From positions 1-64,000 of the forward strand of contig NZ_CP015585.1 in NCBI RefSeq assembly GCF_001941945.1: a DNA stretch of 64,000 nucleotides. Reading direction: 5' to 3'. Both the position numbers and the translations under genes were made by a program. Below, in pieces: positions 1,303 through 11,538 of the stretch. Source of the stretch: Roseomonas gilardii (GTDB taxonomy: Bacteria; Pseudomonadota; Alphaproteobacteria; Acetobacterales; Acetobacteraceae). The notes under the pieces were generated by a model that saw only the letters and a list, made by a program, of their open reading frames with translations, was not told the origin of the DNA and did no database searches. Each line of letters starts with the position of its first letter. Positions within the stretch are counted from its first letter, which is position 1.

Positions 1303-1349
1303 TCGGGGCCGCGATAGCAGATCGGGATGGCGCACGGGACGAAGGTCAC
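1011..1349 (-). CDS. hypothetical protein downstream of the winged-helix gene, possibly truncated
   Basis: The start is a GTG at 1,349 that overlaps the stop of the winged-helix gene in a GTGA, so it is probably translated as the last gene of the dotL operon. The first 65 residues or so look like an ordinary protein, with an opening MTFVPCAIPICYRGPDHPHF and a helical ERDVRTALDFLVAVAA stretch. The remainder lies antisense to the SGNH-type gene and looks like non-coding translation. I do not recognise the family. Both this gene and the SGNH gene seem to end at about the same point (around 1,155). Confidence 0.4.
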   Translation of the reverse strand: MTFVPCAIPICYRGPDHPHFITERDVRTALDFLVAVAATPAGVSAGGVAGLPARRLGEVERAASPRAGRTQVTRRAITAAWTVASCSTVSDRAPSLAPREISTASARTGTVA

Positions 1350-2272
1350 GACGTAGCCTCCTGGGCAATGCCGGTCAGGGGCGGCCGCCGCCGCGGGCGC
1401 TCCAGATCGCTTGGCGGCAGGGCCGGCGTGCCGGCGCGGGCATACCGACCCCAGCCGAGGCGAACGACCTCGCCGGACGCCTGCAGGGCGCGGAGATGGC
1501 CGGTGACGTTGGAGATCGAACGGCCGACATGGCCGGCGATCTCGCCTGCCTGACGCGGCTCCGACAGGAAGCTCAGGATGGCATCGCCCGCCCTCCGCCC
1601 CCGCGTGCGCGAATCTCCGCCGCAGGGCGCCGGCAAGGCAACCAGTCCGGCGGAACGGCTCCCGGTCGGGGCGTAGAGGCCGGGCCCCAGGTGGGACACT
1701 TCACCGCGGCGAAGCATCGCCTGCAGCAGGTCGTTCATCCGGGCCGGGGGCAGGCCAAGGAGCCTCGCCAGATGGAAGCTGCGGATCGGCCGGGCGGGCT
1801 CGGCAAGGACCGCGCTTCGCGCCAGCATCCGGACCAGGGCCTGGCGCTGGGAGGGGGTCGGCACCCGGATCCCGGCCCGCCGCCATGACCCCTGCGGGCC
1901 ACGCTCGGCGGCACCGAGGCGCATCAACGCCTCCACCTCGGCCCCGATCACGGCGGGCGGCAGGGCGGTATGGGACCATAGATGGGCCAGAGATACCCCG
2001 CCGGTGACCGGCAAGGCCGCGGCAATGCGACGGCTGGCGGACCACTCCGGTTCCACCGGGCCATCCCGCAGATCGGCTACGGAATCGGTCCGGATCACGA
2101 GGTCCTGGCAGTAAGGGCGCAGATGGTCCCGGGCGGAAAGCCCGAGCAGCACCAGCGCCATCTCGGCCGGGCTCGCATCGCACTCCCGCGCGAGAGCGCC
2201 CACGCCGAGAGGGTGTGTCAGAGCCGTCCATAGCCTCGCCGCCAGATCGCCCGCCAGCTCCTGACCGGCCAT
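1346..2272 (-). CDS. multi-winged-helix DNA-binding protein in the T4SS operon
   Basis: About 308 residues. The C-terminal third has a clear ArsR/MarR-like winged helix (AGEIAGHVGRSISNVTGHLR then LGWGRYAR). Two similar helix-turn-helix-plus-wing stretches occur earlier (around residues 85-135 and 160-205, the latter ending HLGPGLYAPTG), so it may be a tandem winged-helix protein. The ATG at 2,272 overlaps the dotL stop (TGATG); a GTG lies one codon upstream. The context suggests a regulator or a DNA-processing accessory factor of the transfer system, for example one recognising oriT, but no target is visible. The exact role is unknown. Confidence 0.7.
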   Translation of the reverse strand: MAGQELAGDLAARLWTALTHPLGVGALARECDASPAEMALVLLGLSARDHLRPYCQDLVIRTDSVADLRDGPVEPEWSASRRIAAALPVTGGVSLAHLWSHTALPPAVIGAEVEALMRLGAAERGPQGSWRRAGIRVPTPSQRQALVRMLARSAVLAEPARPIRSFHLARLLGLPPARMNDLLQAMLRRGEVSHLGPGLYAPTGSRSAGLVALPAPCGGDSRTRGRRAGDAILSFLSEPRQAGEIAGHVGRSISNVTGHLRALQASGEVVRLGWGRYARAGTPALPPSDLERPRRRPPLTGIAQEATS

Positions 2273-4575
2273 CACGAAGCCAGCCGCGCGGTCAGGTCGC
2301 GGAGCCGCCCGGCCAGCTCCTCCGGCCGCATGGCAGGCGGCTCCGGCAGGGTGACGAGCCTCGCCTGCGCGAGGGCCTGCCCGACCGCTGCCGCGGCGGC
2401 CTGGGCTTCCTCCGGGCTATTGCCAGCCAGCACCTCGATCGCGGCCACCGCGCGCTCCACCTGTGGTGAACGCCGCAGCCAAAGGGACGAGCCGGGGCCG
2501 GCCGGAGCAGGCGGTGCGGCTGGCGTCGTCCCGCTCTCCAGCATGGCCGTGCTCGACGTCACAGGGGGCTCGGTTCCGGGATCGCTGGCAGAGCGCGGCA
2601 CCACCACCAGGCCGGCCGCGGCGACGGCCGCCGCTGCCCTTTCCGACAGCGGGGCGGACCCTGACGCCGCGAACACCTCCATCATGGCCGCCAGCGCAGC
2701 GTCCGGCCGCTCTGGAACGCCCATGGGCACCCGGCCCGTCTCGATATGCGCCAGGACGTCGACGATCCGCCTGGCCTCCTCCTGCGTCTCGTCCGTGGGC
2801 CCAGCCAGCATGACCGGCCGGTTGCGCCGGATCGGACCCTCGACCTCGATCTCCGCGTGGTACAGCTTGGCGTAGACGCGCCGGCCGCCGAGCAGGATCA
2901 CCGCCTCGCCCTCCAGCAGCTTCTGCAGGTCGGACCAGGCAACACGGTTGACCTTGCGAACCTCGGCCGATGGTCCTTCGCGGTAGTTGCCCGCGTCGCC
3001 CGCGACGAAGCTCGTCGCCTGCGTCACCTCGGTCTCGCCGGCGGTCTTCTCGATCCAGTTCCGGGTGCGCTCCGCATCCTGCTGGCGCATGGCGATGGTC
3101 AGGTTGGCGTTGCCCAGCAGCGAGGCGGTCTTCTCGCCGAGACGGGCCCAGACGCCGCTGATTTCCTGGAAGGCCAGCCAGAAGGCGATGTTGAGGCCGC
3201 GCCCCATGGCCAGCATGCGGTCCATGCCGTTGGTCGCATAGTAGGCCAGCTCGTCGAAGACGACGTAGAACGGCCCCTCGCCCATGCCGGGCTTGAGCGA
3301 GAAGATCTCCCGGGTGTCGCCTTCGAGGCGGGCGCCCAGTAGCTGTGCGAGCATGCCGCGCAGGCTGGCCACGACAATCTTGCCCAGCGACGCCAGGGTG
3401 TCGTCGGAGTTCTCCAGCGCCGGCAGGTTGACCACGAGGATGCGCCGGTTCAGCACCACGTCGCGCATGTCGATGTCGCCATGCGTGACCTTGAAGATGT
3501 GCCCCAGGCTGACCGACAGCTGGGTGAAGGGGCCGGTGAAGTAGAACAGCGCGAAGCCGTGCTGCTTCGACGGCTCCTCGCCCTTCTGCTTGTTGTAGGG
3601 CTGGGTGGTGTCGTAGCCTGGCAGCTCGCCGAGATAGGCGTTCAGCGGGTAGAGGATCTCCTCGGGAATGTCGTTGACGAAGATCTCCCTCACCGTCCCC
3701 CTGATGCCCTCGCGGTGCAGGAAGACCTTGCGGGTCGCCAGCATGCCGATGGAGCGCAGCTCCAGCGCGAAGCGGATCGTCTCGATATTGATCGGAATGC
3801 CCTTCTCGTCGCGCATCCACACCAGCACCGGGGCGATGGTCCCGACCAGCGCGATCGCGCGGGTGCGGAAGACGCCGTTGCTGTCCTCGGAGCGCTGCTC
3901 GCCCAGTTGGCTGACCAGCATCTCGCGCAGCGCATCGGCATTGCCGTGGGCGAAGGGATTGAAGGTGTTGCTGTCCTTCACGCCGGAGGCAACGAGGAGG
4001 TTGAGGGCCAGGAGGTCATCCTCGCGGCCATAGTGCCGCAGCAGCGCCGCGACCTGGCCGTAGAGCTGGTTGTCGGCCTTGCCGTCGACCAGCACGAAGC
4101 CGGTCCCCTGGGCCAGCGCATTGGTCAGCAGGCTGAGGATGGCCGTGGTCTTGCCGGCGCCGGTGGTGCCCGGGATGGTGCAGTGCTGGCGCGCATCCTC
4201 GTTGGTGATCCACAGTTCCTGTCCGGTCACCTGGTCGGTGCCGAGGTAGAGGCTGCCTGCGGCCATGCGAGGCGAGCGGTCCTTCGGGCTCGGGTAGTTC
4301 CAGTCGAGCTGGCCCGCGCTCTGTGGCAGGCGCAGCGGCAGCTTGACGTGCCGGCGCATCACCCAGGTCGCATAGGCGATCGAGGCGGGCACCAGCAGAT
4401 CGAGGGCTGCCGGGTAGAGGAACGCCCCCGCCGCAGTCACCCCCAGCAAGAGTCCGGAGAATTGGCTGCCGAGCAGCTCTGCGAGCCGGACGGTGAGCGG
4501 ACGCACGTCGCGGTAGCCCATGCCGCCACCGCGCTCGAACCGGCCTTGCGGCCCGGAAATCTCGCGCTGGATCAT
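2272..4575 (-). CDS. dotL: DotL/IcmO (TrbC-like) type IV coupling ATPase
   Basis: A 767-residue inner-membrane coupling protein that would hand DNA or protein substrates to the type IVB channel. Two membrane segments lie at about residues 36-74. Walker A is GTTGAGKTT at 136-144 and Walker B is YVVFDEL at 437-443. Between them is the large DotL-specific insertion (about 205-345) containing PVLVWMRDEKG and LYPLNAYLGELPGYD. The C-terminus is Pro/Ala-rich and variable, as in DotL, where adaptors dock. It lies downstream of dotM and a small membrane protein, 9 bases from the latter, and overlaps the winged-helix gene. The equivalent in IncI plasmids is TrbC. A shorter copy of the insertion is encoded separately at 6,236-6,691. 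Confidence 0.95.
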   Translation of the reverse strand: MIQREISGPQGRFERGGGMGYRDVRPLTVRLAELLGSQFSGLLLGVTAAGAFLYPAALDLLVPASIAYATWVMRRHVKLPLRLPQSAGQLDWNYPSPKDRSPRMAAGSLYLGTDQVTGQELWITNEDARQHCTIPGTTGAGKTTAILSLLTNALAQGTGFVLVDGKADNQLYGQVAALLRHYGREDDLLALNLLVASGVKDSNTFNPFAHGNADALREMLVSQLGEQRSEDSNGVFRTRAIALVGTIAPVLVWMRDEKGIPINIETIRFALELRSIGMLATRKVFLHREGIRGTVREIFVNDIPEEILYPLNAYLGELPGYDTTQPYNKQKGEEPSKQHGFALFYFTGPFTQLSVSLGHIFKVTHGDIDMRDVVLNRRILVVNLPALENSDDTLASLGKIVVASLRGMLAQLLGARLEGDTREIFSLKPGMGEGPFYVVFDELAYYATNGMDRMLAMGRGLNIAFWLAFQEISGVWARLGEKTASLLGNANLTIAMRQQDAERTRNWIEKTAGETEVTQATSFVAGDAGNYREGPSAEVRKVNRVAWSDLQKLLEGEAVILLGGRRVYAKLYHAEIEVEGPIRRNRPVMLAGPTDETQEEARRIVDVLAHIETGRVPMGVPERPDAALAAMMEVFAASGSAPLSERAAAAVAAAGLVVVPRSASDPGTEPPVTSSTAMLESGTTPAAPPAPAGPGSSLWLRRSPQVERAVAAIEVLAGNSPEEAQAAAAAVGQALAQARLVTLPEPPAMRPEELAGRLRDLTARLAS

Positions 4576-4584
4576 GATGGGACC

Positions 4585-5058
4585 TCAGCGTTCCAGGCCA
4601 AAGGCGTTGCGGGCCGGGGCGCCGGACGGCGCCGGCCCCTGAACCTGGGTGCCGGGCGTGGAGGGCATGACGATGCGCGGGCGCTCTGCCAGTTGCTGCT
4701 GCAGTCGCGGCGGGAAGGAAGGCGGCATCGCCGTCACGGCAGGCGCCGGCACCGCCCCGGGTATCGCCGGAGATCCAGCGGCGAAGGCAGCAGGGTCCAT
4801 CCCCCCAGGTAGCCGCTGCCCCCCGGCGGTCAGGTAGCCCGCGAGGAACACGGCCCCCCCGAGACCGAGCATGGCGCCAAGCCTCAGCAGCGGGCGCCGC
4901 TGACGCCGCTCCTGGCGCTCCGGAGCTGCCCCCATCGCCTCGCCGAGATGGATGTGCAGATGCACGACCTGCGGCCCGGCGCCGGGTTCCGCCACTCCCT
5001 CCTGGCGCCCGGGAAGGTTCACCACCAGCCCGCCCTCCGCCATTGCAAGTTTCGCCAT
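4585..5058 (-). CDS. small single-pass membrane protein between dotM and dotL
   Basis: 157 residues if started at the ATG at 5,058, which overlaps the dotM stop as ATGA; longer in-frame starts would sit inside dotM. An N-terminal cytoplasmic part contains a HLHIHLGEA stretch. One membrane helix follows at roughly residues 60-80 (LGAMLGLGGAVFLAGYLTAG), then a Pro/Ala-rich periplasmic tail ending NAFGLER. I do not recognise the family. Its tight placement between the two coupling-complex genes suggests it belongs to that complex, which is inference. Confidence 0.7.
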   Translation of the reverse strand: MAKLAMAEGGLVVNLPGRQEGVAEPGAGPQVVHLHIHLGEAMGAAPERQERRQRRPLLRLGAMLGLGGAVFLAGYLTAGGQRLPGGMDPAAFAAGSPAIPGAVPAPAVTAMPPSFPPRLQQQLAERPRIVMPSTPGTQVQGPAPSGAPARNAFGLER

Positions 5059-6239
5059 CACCCCTGCTCCCTGCGCTTCGGCTCGGAGCGATCCTGCTGG
5101 ACGGTCATGCGAATGGCGCTCACGGCTTCCTCGACGCAGGGCTGGAACAGGGCATGCCGCGCCGTCCGCTCGGCCTGCCAATGGGAACGGGCGCCGACCG
5201 CCTCGACGCGTGGATTGGGGTGGCTGTTCTGCCCTGGCCCGTGCCCGGGAAAGCCCAGCGAATGCAGCGCATACCAGAGGTTGCGATTCACCAGCTTGAG
5301 GCCGTTGAACTGCGCCGGCGCCAACACGCCGGAGGCCAGTCGAGCGGCATTGAGGAGCCCCATCATCGCGGTGGTCTCGTAGCCGTGGAGATTGGCGGCG
5401 ATCTCGGCCGGATCGCGGATGGTGGCGTCGGCAAGCGTCGCGTCCGCCCGCGCGAGGACCTCGCCCGGCACGGCCAGGGGCTTGTCCGGGCCCGAAGGAC
5501 CATGCCCGGCATCGGCGGCCAGACCCTCGGCGAAGTCGCCCAGCAGGCTCTGGGAGGATTCCCGATCCCCGGCCAGATGCAGCGCAAAGGCCGCGAAGAG
5601 CACCCGCGCCGCAGGCTGGGCCTTGCGCGAACCGCGCCAGGCGGGACCGAGTTGCCGTGTCAGGGCCCGGCGCAGGCGCGCCTCGTCGATCTCCTGGCTG
5701 TCACTCATGGCGAAGCGCCGCAGCCACTCCTCGAGGTGCAGCGCCGGGTCGGCGGGGCGCGGCGCCGTGGCGGCGGGCATCACCAGCCGGAGCCGGCGCC
5801 CCAGCATGGCGCCAGCCGAGCGGTAGAAGCCCGCCTGCTCGCGCAGCAGGCCGTCGAGATCGAAGCGCCGACGGAAGCGGCCGGGCGGCGCCCAGACGAA
5901 GCACACCACGGCGAGGGCGCCGATCAGCAGCGCCGCCGGCAGGCGGAAGACCGTGTTGACCTGCCCGCACATCCGCACCAGCCGCTCGAAACTGACCGTT
6001 TCGTAGTTGCCCGTGATGACGGCCTCGCGCAGCGCCGCGAGCTCGGTCGTGTAGGGCGAGACGAACGTCATCTTGTGGACCTGCAGCCAGGCCACGGCCG
6101 CGACCACCTCGGCGTGGTGCTCGCTCCAGAGCAGCCAGCCCAGGAACCCGAGGCCCGCCACGATCACGATGAGGCAGAGCACGAAATAGTCGTCGCCCGA
6201 TGCCCAGCCGCGGCGGGAGCCGCCTCCCATGGTGCTCAT
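5058..6239 (-). CDS. dotM: DotM/IcmP (TrbA-like) coupling-complex membrane protein
   Basis: 393 residues. It has an N-terminal membrane helix (YFVLCLIVIVAGLGFLGWLL) and a second at about residues 100-118, then a long cytoplasmic domain. The C-terminal region carries DotM/TrbA-type features: LVNRNLWYALHSLGFPGHG and a later ARSHWQAERTARHALFQPCV. DotM partners DotL in the type IVB coupling complex. The start at 6,239 overlaps the stop of the upstream DotL-like small gene. The order dotM, small membrane protein, dotL is compact and probably one transcript. Confidence 0.9.
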   Translation of the reverse strand: MSTMGGGSRRGWASGDDYFVLCLIVIVAGLGFLGWLLWSEHHAEVVAAVAWLQVHKMTFVSPYTTELAALREAVITGNYETVSFERLVRMCGQVNTVFRLPAALLIGALAVVCFVWAPPGRFRRRFDLDGLLREQAGFYRSAGAMLGRRLRLVMPAATAPRPADPALHLEEWLRRFAMSDSQEIDEARLRRALTRQLGPAWRGSRKAQPAARVLFAAFALHLAGDRESSQSLLGDFAEGLAADAGHGPSGPDKPLAVPGEVLARADATLADATIRDPAEIAANLHGYETTAMMGLLNAARLASGVLAPAQFNGLKLVNRNLWYALHSLGFPGHGPGQNSHPNPRVEAVGARSHWQAERTARHALFQPCVEEAVSAIRMTVQQDRSEPKRREQG

Positions 6240-6691
6240 GCCGGGGCTCCGAAGAAGACGACGTTGGCGTGGTGCCGCAGCGGTACGACGGTCTGCCGCT
6301 CCACCGGCAAACGGCTGTCATAGCCCGGCAGGTCGTCCAGCCATCGGTTGAGCGGATAGACGATGGCCTCGGGCATCGCCCGCGCCTCGATCTCCACGAT
6401 CTCCCCGCCAATCAGGCGGCGGAACCGCCGCCGGGTGGCCAGGGCGGCGATGGAGGACAGCTCCATGGAGAAGCGCACGGCGGGATGATCGAGGACCAGG
6501 CCGGCGTGATCCCGCATCCAGACCAGCACCGGCGAGAGGATGCGCAGCAGGCGCGCGGCCAGGCCGCGCCACGGGCCCTGCCCCACGGCGCGGAAACCCG
6601 CCATGCGGCGCAGCAGCACCATGCGGACGGCATCGGCATCGCCATGCCGCAGGGGGTCGGGGGAACAGGGGATGAATATGGCGCTGGCCAT
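6236..6691 (-). CDS. stand-alone copy of the DotL middle (insertion) domain
   Basis: 151 residues from the ATG at 6,691, chosen because GGAG lies 6 bases upstream. Nearly the whole protein aligns by eye with DotL residues 205-345 of this same locus: LRHGDADAVRMVLLRRM against FAHGNADALREMLVSQL, SPVLVWMRDHAG against APVLVWMRDEKG, and VYPLNRWLDDLPGYD against LYPLNAYLGELPGYD. It has no Walker A, no Walker B and no membrane helix, so it is not a coupling ATPase. It may mimic or cap the DotL surface, or be a duplicated adaptor-binding module. It overlaps dotM by 4 bases and is intact, so it is probably not a decaying fragment. Confidence 0.75.
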   Translation of the reverse strand: MASAIFIPCSPDPLRHGDADAVRMVLLRRMAGFRAVGQGPWRGLAARLLRILSPVLVWMRDHAGLVLDHPAVRFSMELSSIAALATRRRFRRLIGGEIVEIEARAMPEAIVYPLNRWLDDLPGYDSRLPVERQTVVPLRHHANVVFFGAPA

Positions 6692-6747: not shown

Positions 6748-7263
6748 TCAGCGTGCCGGGGGGACCGCGGATCCCGACGCGATGCGGCGCAGCCGCTCGG
6801 CGTGCTCCAGCACCCGGCGCAGGTAGCGCGTCTTGTAGACCTCGGTGCTGGAATGATAGCGGCCGACCCCTTCCCAGAAGTCGCCGCCGGCACTGTCCAG
6901 CGCGTTGCGGAGGATCCAGGCGCCGGCCTCGACATTGGCGCAGAAGTTGTTGAGCAGCGCCTCGCGCGCGCCTGCCACGCTGGTGTGCCAGCGCCGGGCC
7001 AGGGCTGGCAGGTGGATCTCGTTGACCTGCATCGGGCCGATATCCACCGTGCCGTTGGTGTTGCCGCTGGTGCGGCCGATCGCGCCTCCCTCGACGGAGA
7101 GCAGCAGGACGATCGCGCCAGACGGGACGCGGTGCAGGACAGCGGCGGCACGGATGCACTCGGTGGCCGTGGCAACCGTCGTATCCGTCACACCCTCCGC
7201 CCGCGCCGGGGTGAGGGCCAGCAGCGCCAGGGCAGCCGTTGCCGCGATCAGCGGGGCTCTCAC
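6748..7263 (-). CDS. lytic transglycosylase (SLT domain), exported
   Basis: 171 residues from a GTG at 7,263 that overlaps the upstream stop as GTGA. A signal peptide (LIAATAALALLALTPARA) precedes a soluble-lytic-transglycosylase core: LLLSVEGGAIG with the likely catalytic Glu, then VDIGPMQVNEIHLPAL matching the GLMQV block, and a late GVGRYHSS. Such enzymes open peptidoglycan locally so the secretion channel can pass, like the transglycosylases of other conjugation systems. It lies in the same operon as dotB and icmT. Confidence 0.85.
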   Translation of the reverse strand: MRAPLIAATAALALLALTPARAEGVTDTTVATATECIRAAAVLHRVPSGAIVLLLSVEGGAIGRTSGNTNGTVDIGPMQVNEIHLPALARRWHTSVAGAREALLNNFCANVEAGAWILRNALDSAGGDFWEGVGRYHSSTEVYKTRYLRRVLEHAERLRRIASGSAVPPAR

Positions 7264-7685
7264 GGACTGGCTCCCGGCGAGACCCGGCGTGCCGGAGCCT
7301 GCTCCAGCCGCAGCGACCTCCACACTTCGGCAAAGTCGTTGACCAGCAGCGCGTTGGGGCTGCCGGTGCGGCTGATCGCCTCCAGGGCGGCGAGCGCGGC
7401 CACGGTCAGGGGCTCGCCCCGAACCGCCTGCACCCGGTAGCCCAGCAACGCGCCGGGATCGCGCGCCTGCTCGACCCCGAGCGAGCGGCCGGTGGCGGCC
7501 TGCCAGACCGCATCGGCCGCCGCCATAAGGCTGGGCATCACTCCGTCCGGCGCCCCCGCCAGATCGGCGGGCAGGCGGTGCAGCCGGCCGGAAGCCTCGT
7601 CGCGCAGCAGCAGAGGGCGTCCGTCACGCTCGACCATCGCCTGCAGGACGTGGCCGAGCCGGCCAAGGTCCAGGGAGGGGCTCAT
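7260..7685 (-). CDS. IcmS-like small adaptor protein (tentative)
   Basis: 141 residues starting at 7,685, overlapping the icmT stop by 4 bases. Two points favour IcmS. It lies directly after icmT, as icmS does in Legionella. The middle also has GALLGYRVQAV followed by a helical segment, resembling ALLGIRVVF and the helix after it in IcmS. The start, SLDLGRLGHVLQAMVERDG, resembles the helical IcmS N-terminus. There is no signal peptide or membrane segment, so it is cytoplasmic. IcmS/IcmW adaptors bind DotL and effectors; IncI conjugation systems generally lack them. Similarity is weak and a structure comparison would be needed. Confidence 0.45.
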   Translation of the reverse strand: MSPSLDLGRLGHVLQAMVERDGRPLLLRDEASGRLHRLPADLAGAPDGVMPSLMAAADAVWQAATGRSLGVEQARDPGALLGYRVQAVRGEPLTVAALAALEAISRTGSPNALLVNDFAEVWRSLRLEQAPARRVSPGASP

Positions 7686-10870: not shown

Positions 10871-11116
10871 ATGGGCCAGTTGCTGGTCAGAGGCCTGGAC
10901 GACAGGCTCATCCAGACCCTCAGGCAGAGAGCAGCACGCTCGGGCCGTTCCGTCGAGGCCGAGCATCGGGCATTGCTCGAGCAGGTATTGGGGCCGGAGG
11001 CTGAGACCTTTGCCGATGTCGCGGCGCGCCTGCGTGCCCAATCGCCCCCACAGAGCACCGACAGCGCCGACCTCCTGCGGGCCGACCGCGACCGGGAGCA
11101 AGGTCGGGACTATTGA
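10871..11116 (+). CDS. VapB/FitA-type ribbon-helix-helix antitoxin
   Basis: 81 residues. The N-terminus MGQLLVRGLDDRLIQTLRQR, followed by RSVEAEHRALLEQVL, is the ribbon-helix-helix pattern of FitA-like antitoxins. The C-terminal half is charged and probably binds the toxin. It overlaps the toxin gene (stop TGA inside the toxin's TTG start region). It should neutralise the PIN toxin and repress its own promoter through the inverted repeat just upstream. Confidence 0.85.
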   Translation: MGQLLVRGLDDRLIQTLRQRAARSGRSVEAEHRALLEQVLGPEAETFADVAARLRAQSPPQSTDSADLLRADRDREQGRDY

Positions 11117-11538
11117 AAGCCATCGTGGATGCGTCCATCGTCGCCAAATGGGTCATCGCAGAAGAGCATTCCGAGAAGGCGGCCACCCTGCTTGGCTATG
11201 ATGTCCTCTATGCACCCGATCATTGGCAGGCCGAGGCCGTCAACGTGATCTGGTCGAAGGTTCAGTTCGGTGATCTGACGGTGGAGGAGGCGGAGCCGAG
11301 AGTGGGCCTCCTCCTTCGCGCTCCGATCGTTACCATGCCGATTGCGTCCCTCATGAAGCACGCCTTCACGATTTCGGTCGGGAACAGCGTCACCATCTAT
11401 GATTCCCTCTACATCGCCATGGCGCGCCATCATGATGTTCCCTTCGTGACGGCCGATGCCCGGCTGCTCCGGAAGATCACCGATGTATCCCTGCGACCGC
11501 TCCTGCGATGGATCGGCGATCTACCTGCGGTGAAATGA
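11113..11538 (+). CDS. VapC-type PIN-domain ribonuclease toxin
   Basis: 141 residues from a TTG at 11,113 that overlaps the antitoxin stop, suggesting translational coupling. The PIN-domain acidic residues are visible as Asp6 (AIVDASIV), Glu41 (QAEAVNVIW), Asp97 (IYDSLYIAMA) and Asp115 (FVTADARLL). VapC toxins cleave specific RNAs. The pair lies on the opposite strand between the dotD and icmB blocks of the secretion locus, so it interrupts an otherwise one-directional cluster and probably stabilises the element. Confidence 0.88.
   Translation: MKAIVDASIVAKWVIAEEHSEKAATLLGYDVLYAPDHWQAEAVNVIWSKVQFGDLTVEEAEPRVGLLLRAPIVTMPIASLMKHAFTISVGNSVTIYDSLYIAMARHHDVPFVTADARLLRKITDVSLRPLLRWIGDLPAVK

What the first reader, a model, noticed from the sequence alone, without database searches (positions are those of the whole stretch)
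6236..6691. Free-standing copy of the DotL middle domain between dotM and a transglycosylase
Seen: a 151-residue intact gene matches residues 205-345 of the neighbouring DotL over almost its full length, but lacks both Walker motifs and membrane helices. It overlaps dotM and has its own ribosome site. Established: the DotL insertion and tail dock coupling-complex partners in Legionella. Inference: the small protein may compete for, mimic or complete the DotL surface, regulating substrate entry. I am not aware of this as a described Dot/Icm component.
Basis: partly seen in the sequence, partly recalled or inferred. Interest (0 to 1): 0.72.

Follow-up and report, generated by a model that had tools for sequence, protein, structure and literature searches.

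The report
Stand-alone DotL all-alpha domain gene
Some Roseomonas plasmids carry, inside the gene cluster for their DNA-transfer machine, a small conserved gene that is a separate copy of just one domain of the machine's ATPase, the domain that in related machines recognises the cargo; this would let that domain's job be studied apart from the motor.

Summary
Window 6236-6691 (-) encodes a 151-residue intact protein, 38% identical (E 6e-31) to residues 195-345 of the neighbouring DotL. That stretch is the all-alpha domain (AAD), which type IV coupling proteins carry between Walker A and Walker B. The gene is not a decaying fragment. It sits at the same place, between the transglycosylase and dotM, in 12 copies on 11 Roseomonas plasmid records and in four further Roseomonas genomes. 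Reading frame and fold motifs are under purifying selection, and all 15 copies inspected end in an ATGA/GTGA overlap with dotM; 14 have a GGAG ribosome site. All DotLs with the gene form one clade (98/95). Sister and outgroup systems have the transglycosylase directly followed by dotM, so the gene was most likely gained once. About 400 genomes sampled at family level and about 400 at order level hold no other free-standing copy. The window's system is an IncI/Dot-Icm-type (MPF-I) conjugation system with a MobF relaxase on the same plasmid, not shown to be an effector injector. Best mechanism (inferred, about 45%): an accessory coupling-complex subunit that binds in trans what AADs bind, namely relaxosome or substrate. 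A CagZ-like regulator of DotL is the main rival. I found no description of a free-standing AAD.

The parts
6236..6691 (-). free-standing all-alpha-domain (AAD) gene, 151 aa
6698..6701 (-). GGAG ribosome-binding site, 6 nt before the ATG; GGAG present in 14 of the 15 copies inspected
6236..6239 (-). ATGA overlap of the AAD gene's stop with the dotM start; ATGA or GTGA in all 15 copies inspected
5058..6239 (-). dotM (icmP/trbA homologue), 393 aa
4585..5061 (-). small protein with one hydrophobic segment between dotM and dotL (about 157 aa, start uncertain; position of trbB in IncI/IncM)
   Evidence: no Pfam hit
2272..4575 (-). dotL (icmO/trbC homologue), coupling ATPase, 767 aa, carrying its own intact AAD
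3541..3963 (-). AAD inside dotL that matches the free-standing gene
6748..7323 (-). lytic transglycosylase (SLT, TrbN-like); start uncertain
1346..2275 (-). 309-aa protein with winged-helix-like repeats downstream of dotL; enlarged form found with the AAD gene

Best explanation
Shown: the gene is a conserved, free-standing copy of the all-alpha domain of the coupling ATPase DotL. It was most likely gained once, between the transglycosylase gene and dotM, in a clade of MPF-I (IncI/Dot-Icm type) conjugation systems on Roseomonas plasmids, and it has been kept under purifying selection. Inferred: it is made together with DotM by translational coupling and works as a soluble accessory subunit of the coupling complex. 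It presents a second AAD, not covalently tied to the ATPase ring, and binds the ligand that AADs bind, most likely the MobF relaxase/relaxosome or a protein substrate, so that cargo is captured or selected before it is handed to the DotL channel entrance.
For: Homology to the DotL AAD: BLASTP E 6e-31; PDB chain 6sz9 (Legionella DotL) E 6.6e-7 for the single protein and 1.3e-12 for the family profile. AlphaFold model pLDDT 85, matching 6sz9 residues 181-348 at Z 12.6 over 138 residues, then the AAD-containing Cagbeta at Z 5.2, with unrelated folds at 3.0 and below. Same position in Roseomonas plasmids. dN/dS 0.09-0.41 within clades, only one frame both open and conserved. A/GTGA overlap with dotM in all 15 copies inspected. 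DotLs with the gene form one clade at 98/95; the copies form one clade at 100/99 with the same subgroups. Core motifs shared with DotL (VLxW.RD, P113, YL..LPGYD, Q133, H141) are kept, while the near-invariant N-terminal FNPF..GNADA.RE segment that leads into DotL's ATPase domain is lost, as expected of a domain that no longer sits on an ATPase. AADs are reported to recognise relaxosomes or substrates (PMC7434980, PMC12624023), and in the Cagbeta hexamer AADs barely touch each other (PMC9886983), so an AAD ligand is the likelier partner than a neighbouring AAD.
Against: No binding partner was tested; no complex could be predicted here. The protein evolves faster than the DotL AAD, which fits a receptor for a variable partner but also a regulator. 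Related Roseomonas conjugation systems do without it, so it is not generally needed. The high-confidence model relied on DotL rows in its alignment; a model from seven free-standing sequences alone was poor (pLDDT 43).
Confidence: 0.45

Rival explanations
1. Regulator of DotL: the free AAD binds DotL, or DotL's AAD ligand, and holds the ATPase inactive until cargo is ready, as CagZ does for Cagbeta.
For: CagZ, a small soluble protein, binds the AAD of Cagbeta and traps it as a monomer (PMC9886983), a precedent for small proteins acting at this domain. The gene lies in the dotL-dotM operon, and an AAD copy could titrate AAD ligands.
Against: CagZ is not an AAD copy, and AADs barely contact each other in the Cagbeta hexamer (PMC9886983). 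Translational coupling with dotM suggests a subunit made in step with the machine, though it does not exclude a regulator.
Confidence: 0.25
2. Assembly or stabilising partner of DotM in the inner membrane, with no role in cargo recognition.
For: A/GTGA overlap with dotM in every copy inspected and position between transglycosylase and dotM.
Against: The known DotL-DotM contact (A363/E364/D366, PMC7280309) lies outside the copied stretch, which ends at about Legionella residue 339-348. Related DotMs work without the gene.
Confidence: 0.15
3. Interference or self/non-self factor: strains carry several such plasmids, and the free AAD titrates the relaxosome or coupling protein of a rival system.
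For: Several strains hold two or more such systems: KE2513 three copies, pTT14-2 two, FDAARGOS_362 and AD1 on two or more plasmids each.
Against: The gene lies inside the transfer operon, not with entry-exclusion or fertility-inhibition genes, and is inherited with its own DotL.
Confidence: 0.1
4. Decaying fragment of a second dotL.
For: It is clearly derived from the DotL AAD.
Against: Intact frame in every copy inspected, purifying selection over large divergence, conserved ribosome site and overlap, exact domain limits, no remnant of the rest of dotL beside it.
Confidence: 0.02

Closest known systems
All-alpha domain of DotL/IcmO (Legionella T4BSS, PDB 6sz9) and TrbC (IncI/IncM)
   Same: Homologous sequence and predicted fold over the whole protein; same operon type, with the order trbC-trbB-trbA-trbN in IncM matching dotL-small gene-dotM-[AAD gene]-transglycosylase here (PMC6112013).
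   Different: Free-standing: no ATPase domain, no membrane helices, no C-terminal tail; DotL keeps its own AAD besides.
CagZ of the Helicobacter pylori Cag system
   Same: Small soluble protein of a T4SS locus; CagZ acts at the AAD of the coupling ATPase (PMC9886983), which may be true here too.
   Different: CagZ is a partner of an AAD, not a copy of one; no homology was found.
DotY and DotZ, extra subunits of the Legionella coupling complex
   Same: Accessory proteins of the coupling complex found late (PMC7280309): possible functional parallel.
   Different: Encoded outside the dot/icm cluster and not described as DotL domain copies; here the gene is a DotL domain copy inside the operon.
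TraM-like and other relaxosome adaptors of conjugation systems
   Same: Would share the role of linking cargo to the coupling ATPase if the best explanation holds; the AAD of TrwB is reported to resemble the DNA-binding domain of F TraM (PMC7434980).
   Different: No sequence relation found; DNA binding not tested.

Membership tests
Type IV coupling protein (VirD4/TrwB/DotL) | Nucleotide-binding domain with Walker A and B | tested here: not met
   No Pfam or NCBIfam ATPase family hit; the alignment starts after Walker A and ends before Walker B of DotL
Type IV coupling protein (VirD4/TrwB/DotL) | N-terminal transmembrane domain | tested here: not met
   Maximum 19-residue hydropathy 1.07; compact soluble model
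All-alpha domain of DotL | Homologous sequence over the domain | tested here: met
   E 6e-31 to the window DotL; profile E 1.3e-12 to Legionella DotL
All-alpha domain of DotL | Same fold | tested here: met
   Z 12.6, 138 residues, rmsd 3.0 to 6sz9 181-348; model built with DotL rows in the alignment, FS-only model poor
MPF-I / T4BSS conjugation system (the locus) | DotL, DotM, DotH, DotD, DotG-like (TrbI), secretion ATPase and SLT genes together, relaxase on the same plasmid | tested here: met
   MobF relaxase on the same contig at C3:260409-261260
Legionella-type coupling complex | DotN, IcmS, IcmW, LvgA, DotY, DotZ partners | not tested
   Not searched for
CagZ | L- or U-shaped helical bundle that binds a coupling-protein AAD | tested here: inconclusive
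   CagZ not among the listed structural matches, which does not exclude it; binding not testable here

The most novel reading that the evidence does not exclude
A conjugation system in which the cargo-recognition domain of the coupling ATPase has been duplicated into a separate subunit, so that cargo selection works in trans to the motor: a two-part coupling protein.
Probability: 0.4. Interest if true: 0.7.

Novelty: new variant of a known kind. Interest (0 to 1): 0.52.

Why it matters
What the AAD of coupling ATPases does is known mostly from swaps and truncations of the whole ATPase. Here nature has separated the domain from the motor and kept it for a long time, beside close relatives that lack it. 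Deleting one small gene would test the domain's role without touching the ATPase. It also shows that the make-up of T4BSS coupling complexes differs between plasmid lineages.

Tried and rejected
Decaying second dotL: rejected (intact frames, dN/dS, position). General Dot/Icm component: rejected within the samples searched; about 400 genomes of the family and about 400 of the order hold only DotL-length frames outside genus Roseomonas (per-genome candidates were limited to 9, so a very divergent copy could be missed). Mimic of the mapped DotL-DotM contact: unlikely, that contact lies just outside the copied stretch (PMC7280309). Charge as a clue to DNA binding: the window's group is basic (pI 9.5-11.1 in five of six) and DotL AADs acidic, but two other members have pI 6.0-6.6, so not used. 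Placing the copy within the DotL tree: AAD trees are unresolved; grouping the copies with the DotLs of the same systems is allowed and slightly favoured (p-AU 0.69) but not shown. An AlphaFold model from free-standing sequences alone failed (pLDDT 43). PHROGs gave only two marginal families (E 0.03-0.04); Pfam and NCBIfam gave nothing for this protein. Paper searches found no free-standing AAD and no paper on Roseomonas T4BSS plasmids; most subscription papers are not in the library.

Full report
Observation. The ORF at 6236-6691 (-) is intact, 151 aa. It aligns with DotL 195-345 of the same locus at 38% identity, E 6e-31, and with Legionella DotL 215-326 in the PDB (6sz9, E 6.6e-7). It has no hit in Pfam or NCBIfam, Walker-containing families included, and no membrane helix is indicated. 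The neighbours are dotM (DotM_C E 1.9e-47) and a TrbN-like lytic transglycosylase. DotL itself is full length (E 2e-109 to Legionella DotL).

What the copied stretch is. In coupling ATPases the segment between Walker A and Walker B is the all-alpha domain, AAD (TrwB 184-297, PMC7434980; DotL AAD marked in PMC7280309). The AlphaFold model of the window protein (pLDDT 85; 20-row alignment that includes 13 DotL AADs) matches Legionella DotL residues 181-348 at Z 12.6, then the AAD-containing H. pylori coupling ATPase Cagbeta at Z 5.2; unrelated folds are at 3.0 or below. The protein keeps motifs shared with DotL (VLxW.RD, P107, P113, YL..LPGYD, Q133, H141) and has lost the FNPF..GNADA.RE segment that is near-invariant in DotLs and leads into the ATPase domain. 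It has its own invariant positions (R47, A82, R139, P150). I read this as a domain freed from its ATPase, not a spare part for the ring.

Distribution. In PLSDB plasmids the free-standing form is found on 11 Roseomonas records, 97% to 39% identical, annotated as hypothetical proteins; in the rows listed for other genera the matches lie inside annotated coupling proteins, apart from one record without annotation. pTT14-2 carries two copies, each between a transglycosylase and dotM. In genus-level whole genomes 6 of 15 have a DotL of this kind and 5 of these have the free copy (KE2513 three times). The sixth, G003, has DotL only; its contig size and match coordinates agree with the OT10 plasmid, where the dotM region is broken by IS elements. 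About 400 family genomes and about 400 order genomes hold no other free copy; matches outside the genus are in frames of 407 aa or more. In four Roseomonas systems without it (E05, pTT14-3, p2-AD3, pTT14-6), in the sister system G179, and in Lichenicola, Acidisoma, Beijerinckia, Roseiarcus and others, the transglycosylase is directly followed by dotM.

History. In a tree of full-length DotLs the 12 systems with the gene form one clade (98/95), sister to G179, which lacks it: one gain is the simplest history. The free copies form one clade (100/99) with the same subgroups as their DotLs. Where they attach within the DotL AAD tree is not resolved; grouping them with the DotLs of the same systems is not rejected and scores slightly better (p-AU 0.69).

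Selection and expression signals. dN/dS between free copies is 0.09-0.41 within clades; comparisons between the two main clades run higher (up to 0.94) with synonymous sites near saturation. The DotL AAD is under tighter constraint in most pairs. Only the annotated frame is both open and best conserved in every pair tested. In all 15 copies inspected the stop overlaps the dotM start by 4 nt (ATGA or GTGA), and 14 of the 15 have GGAG 6-8 nt before the start; L006 reads cgagac at that place. Open frame, start and overlap hold also in pTT14-2, where one system has dotM and dotL broken into several frames and the other is interrupted by IS elements.

The system. The window's locus has DotH, DotD, a TrbI/DotG-like protein, a secretion ATPase, DotL, DotM and SLT. 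The only MobF (TrwC) relaxase of the genome lies on the same contig at C3:260409-261260 of 265,182; if that contig is a circular plasmid, the relaxase is within about 5 kb of the window start. In the IncM plasmid pCTX-M3, trbA, trbB and trbC are each needed for conjugation (PMC6112013). So the setting is plasmid conjugation; effector injection was not tested.

Mechanism. AADs are reported to recognise relaxosomes or protein substrates and to help activate the channel (PMC7434980, PMC12624023), and in the Cagbeta hexamer they hardly touch each other (PMC9886983). A free AAD made in step with DotM is therefore most simply an extra receptor for AAD ligands within the coupling complex (about 45%). 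CagZ, which binds the Cagbeta AAD and keeps the ATPase monomeric (PMC9886983), shows that small proteins can also act as brakes at this domain, so a regulator is the main rival (25%). Assembly of DotM (15%) and interference between co-resident plasmids (10%) remain open. All of this is inference; no partner was tested.

Novelty. Paper searches found no free-standing AAD and no study of Roseomonas T4BSS plasmids. I rate it a new variant of a known kind: a known domain in a known machine, in a new arrangement limited to one genus as far as searched.

Noticed in passing
window 1346-2275 (-): 309-aa protein with winged-helix-like repeats downstream of dotL. Systems with the free AAD mostly have this ~300-aa form; Roseomonas systems without it have a ~160-aa two-repeat form sharing the C-terminal repeat. 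It is in pieces in KE2513 L053/L054 and partly missing in L004, while the AAD gene stays intact.
   Followed up: partly
L023 (G003 chromosome, 1495-1764): Decayed dotL piece with two stops, 71% identical to the window DotL and 54% to a DotL without the free AAD: likely relic of a system of the window's kind in a genome whose plasmid system lacks the gene.
   Followed up: partly
L006 and L072 (pTT14-2): One plasmid carries two systems with the free AAD; one has dotM and dotL split over several frames, the other is IS-damaged; the AAD gene is open in both. Sequencing errors could explain the split frames.
   Followed up: partly
window 10871-11538 (+): A likely antitoxin/PIN-domain toxin pair (my reading of the ORFs) inside the transfer operon between the DotD-side genes and the large ATPase; other plasmids have a different antitoxin/PIN pair at the same place (L004, L006) or none (L001, L002).
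   Followed up: no
L007, L053-L056, L059 dotM: DotM matches the window DotM in two pieces around residues 155-200, so the second clade of systems seems to have an insertion or divergent stretch there.
   Followed up: no
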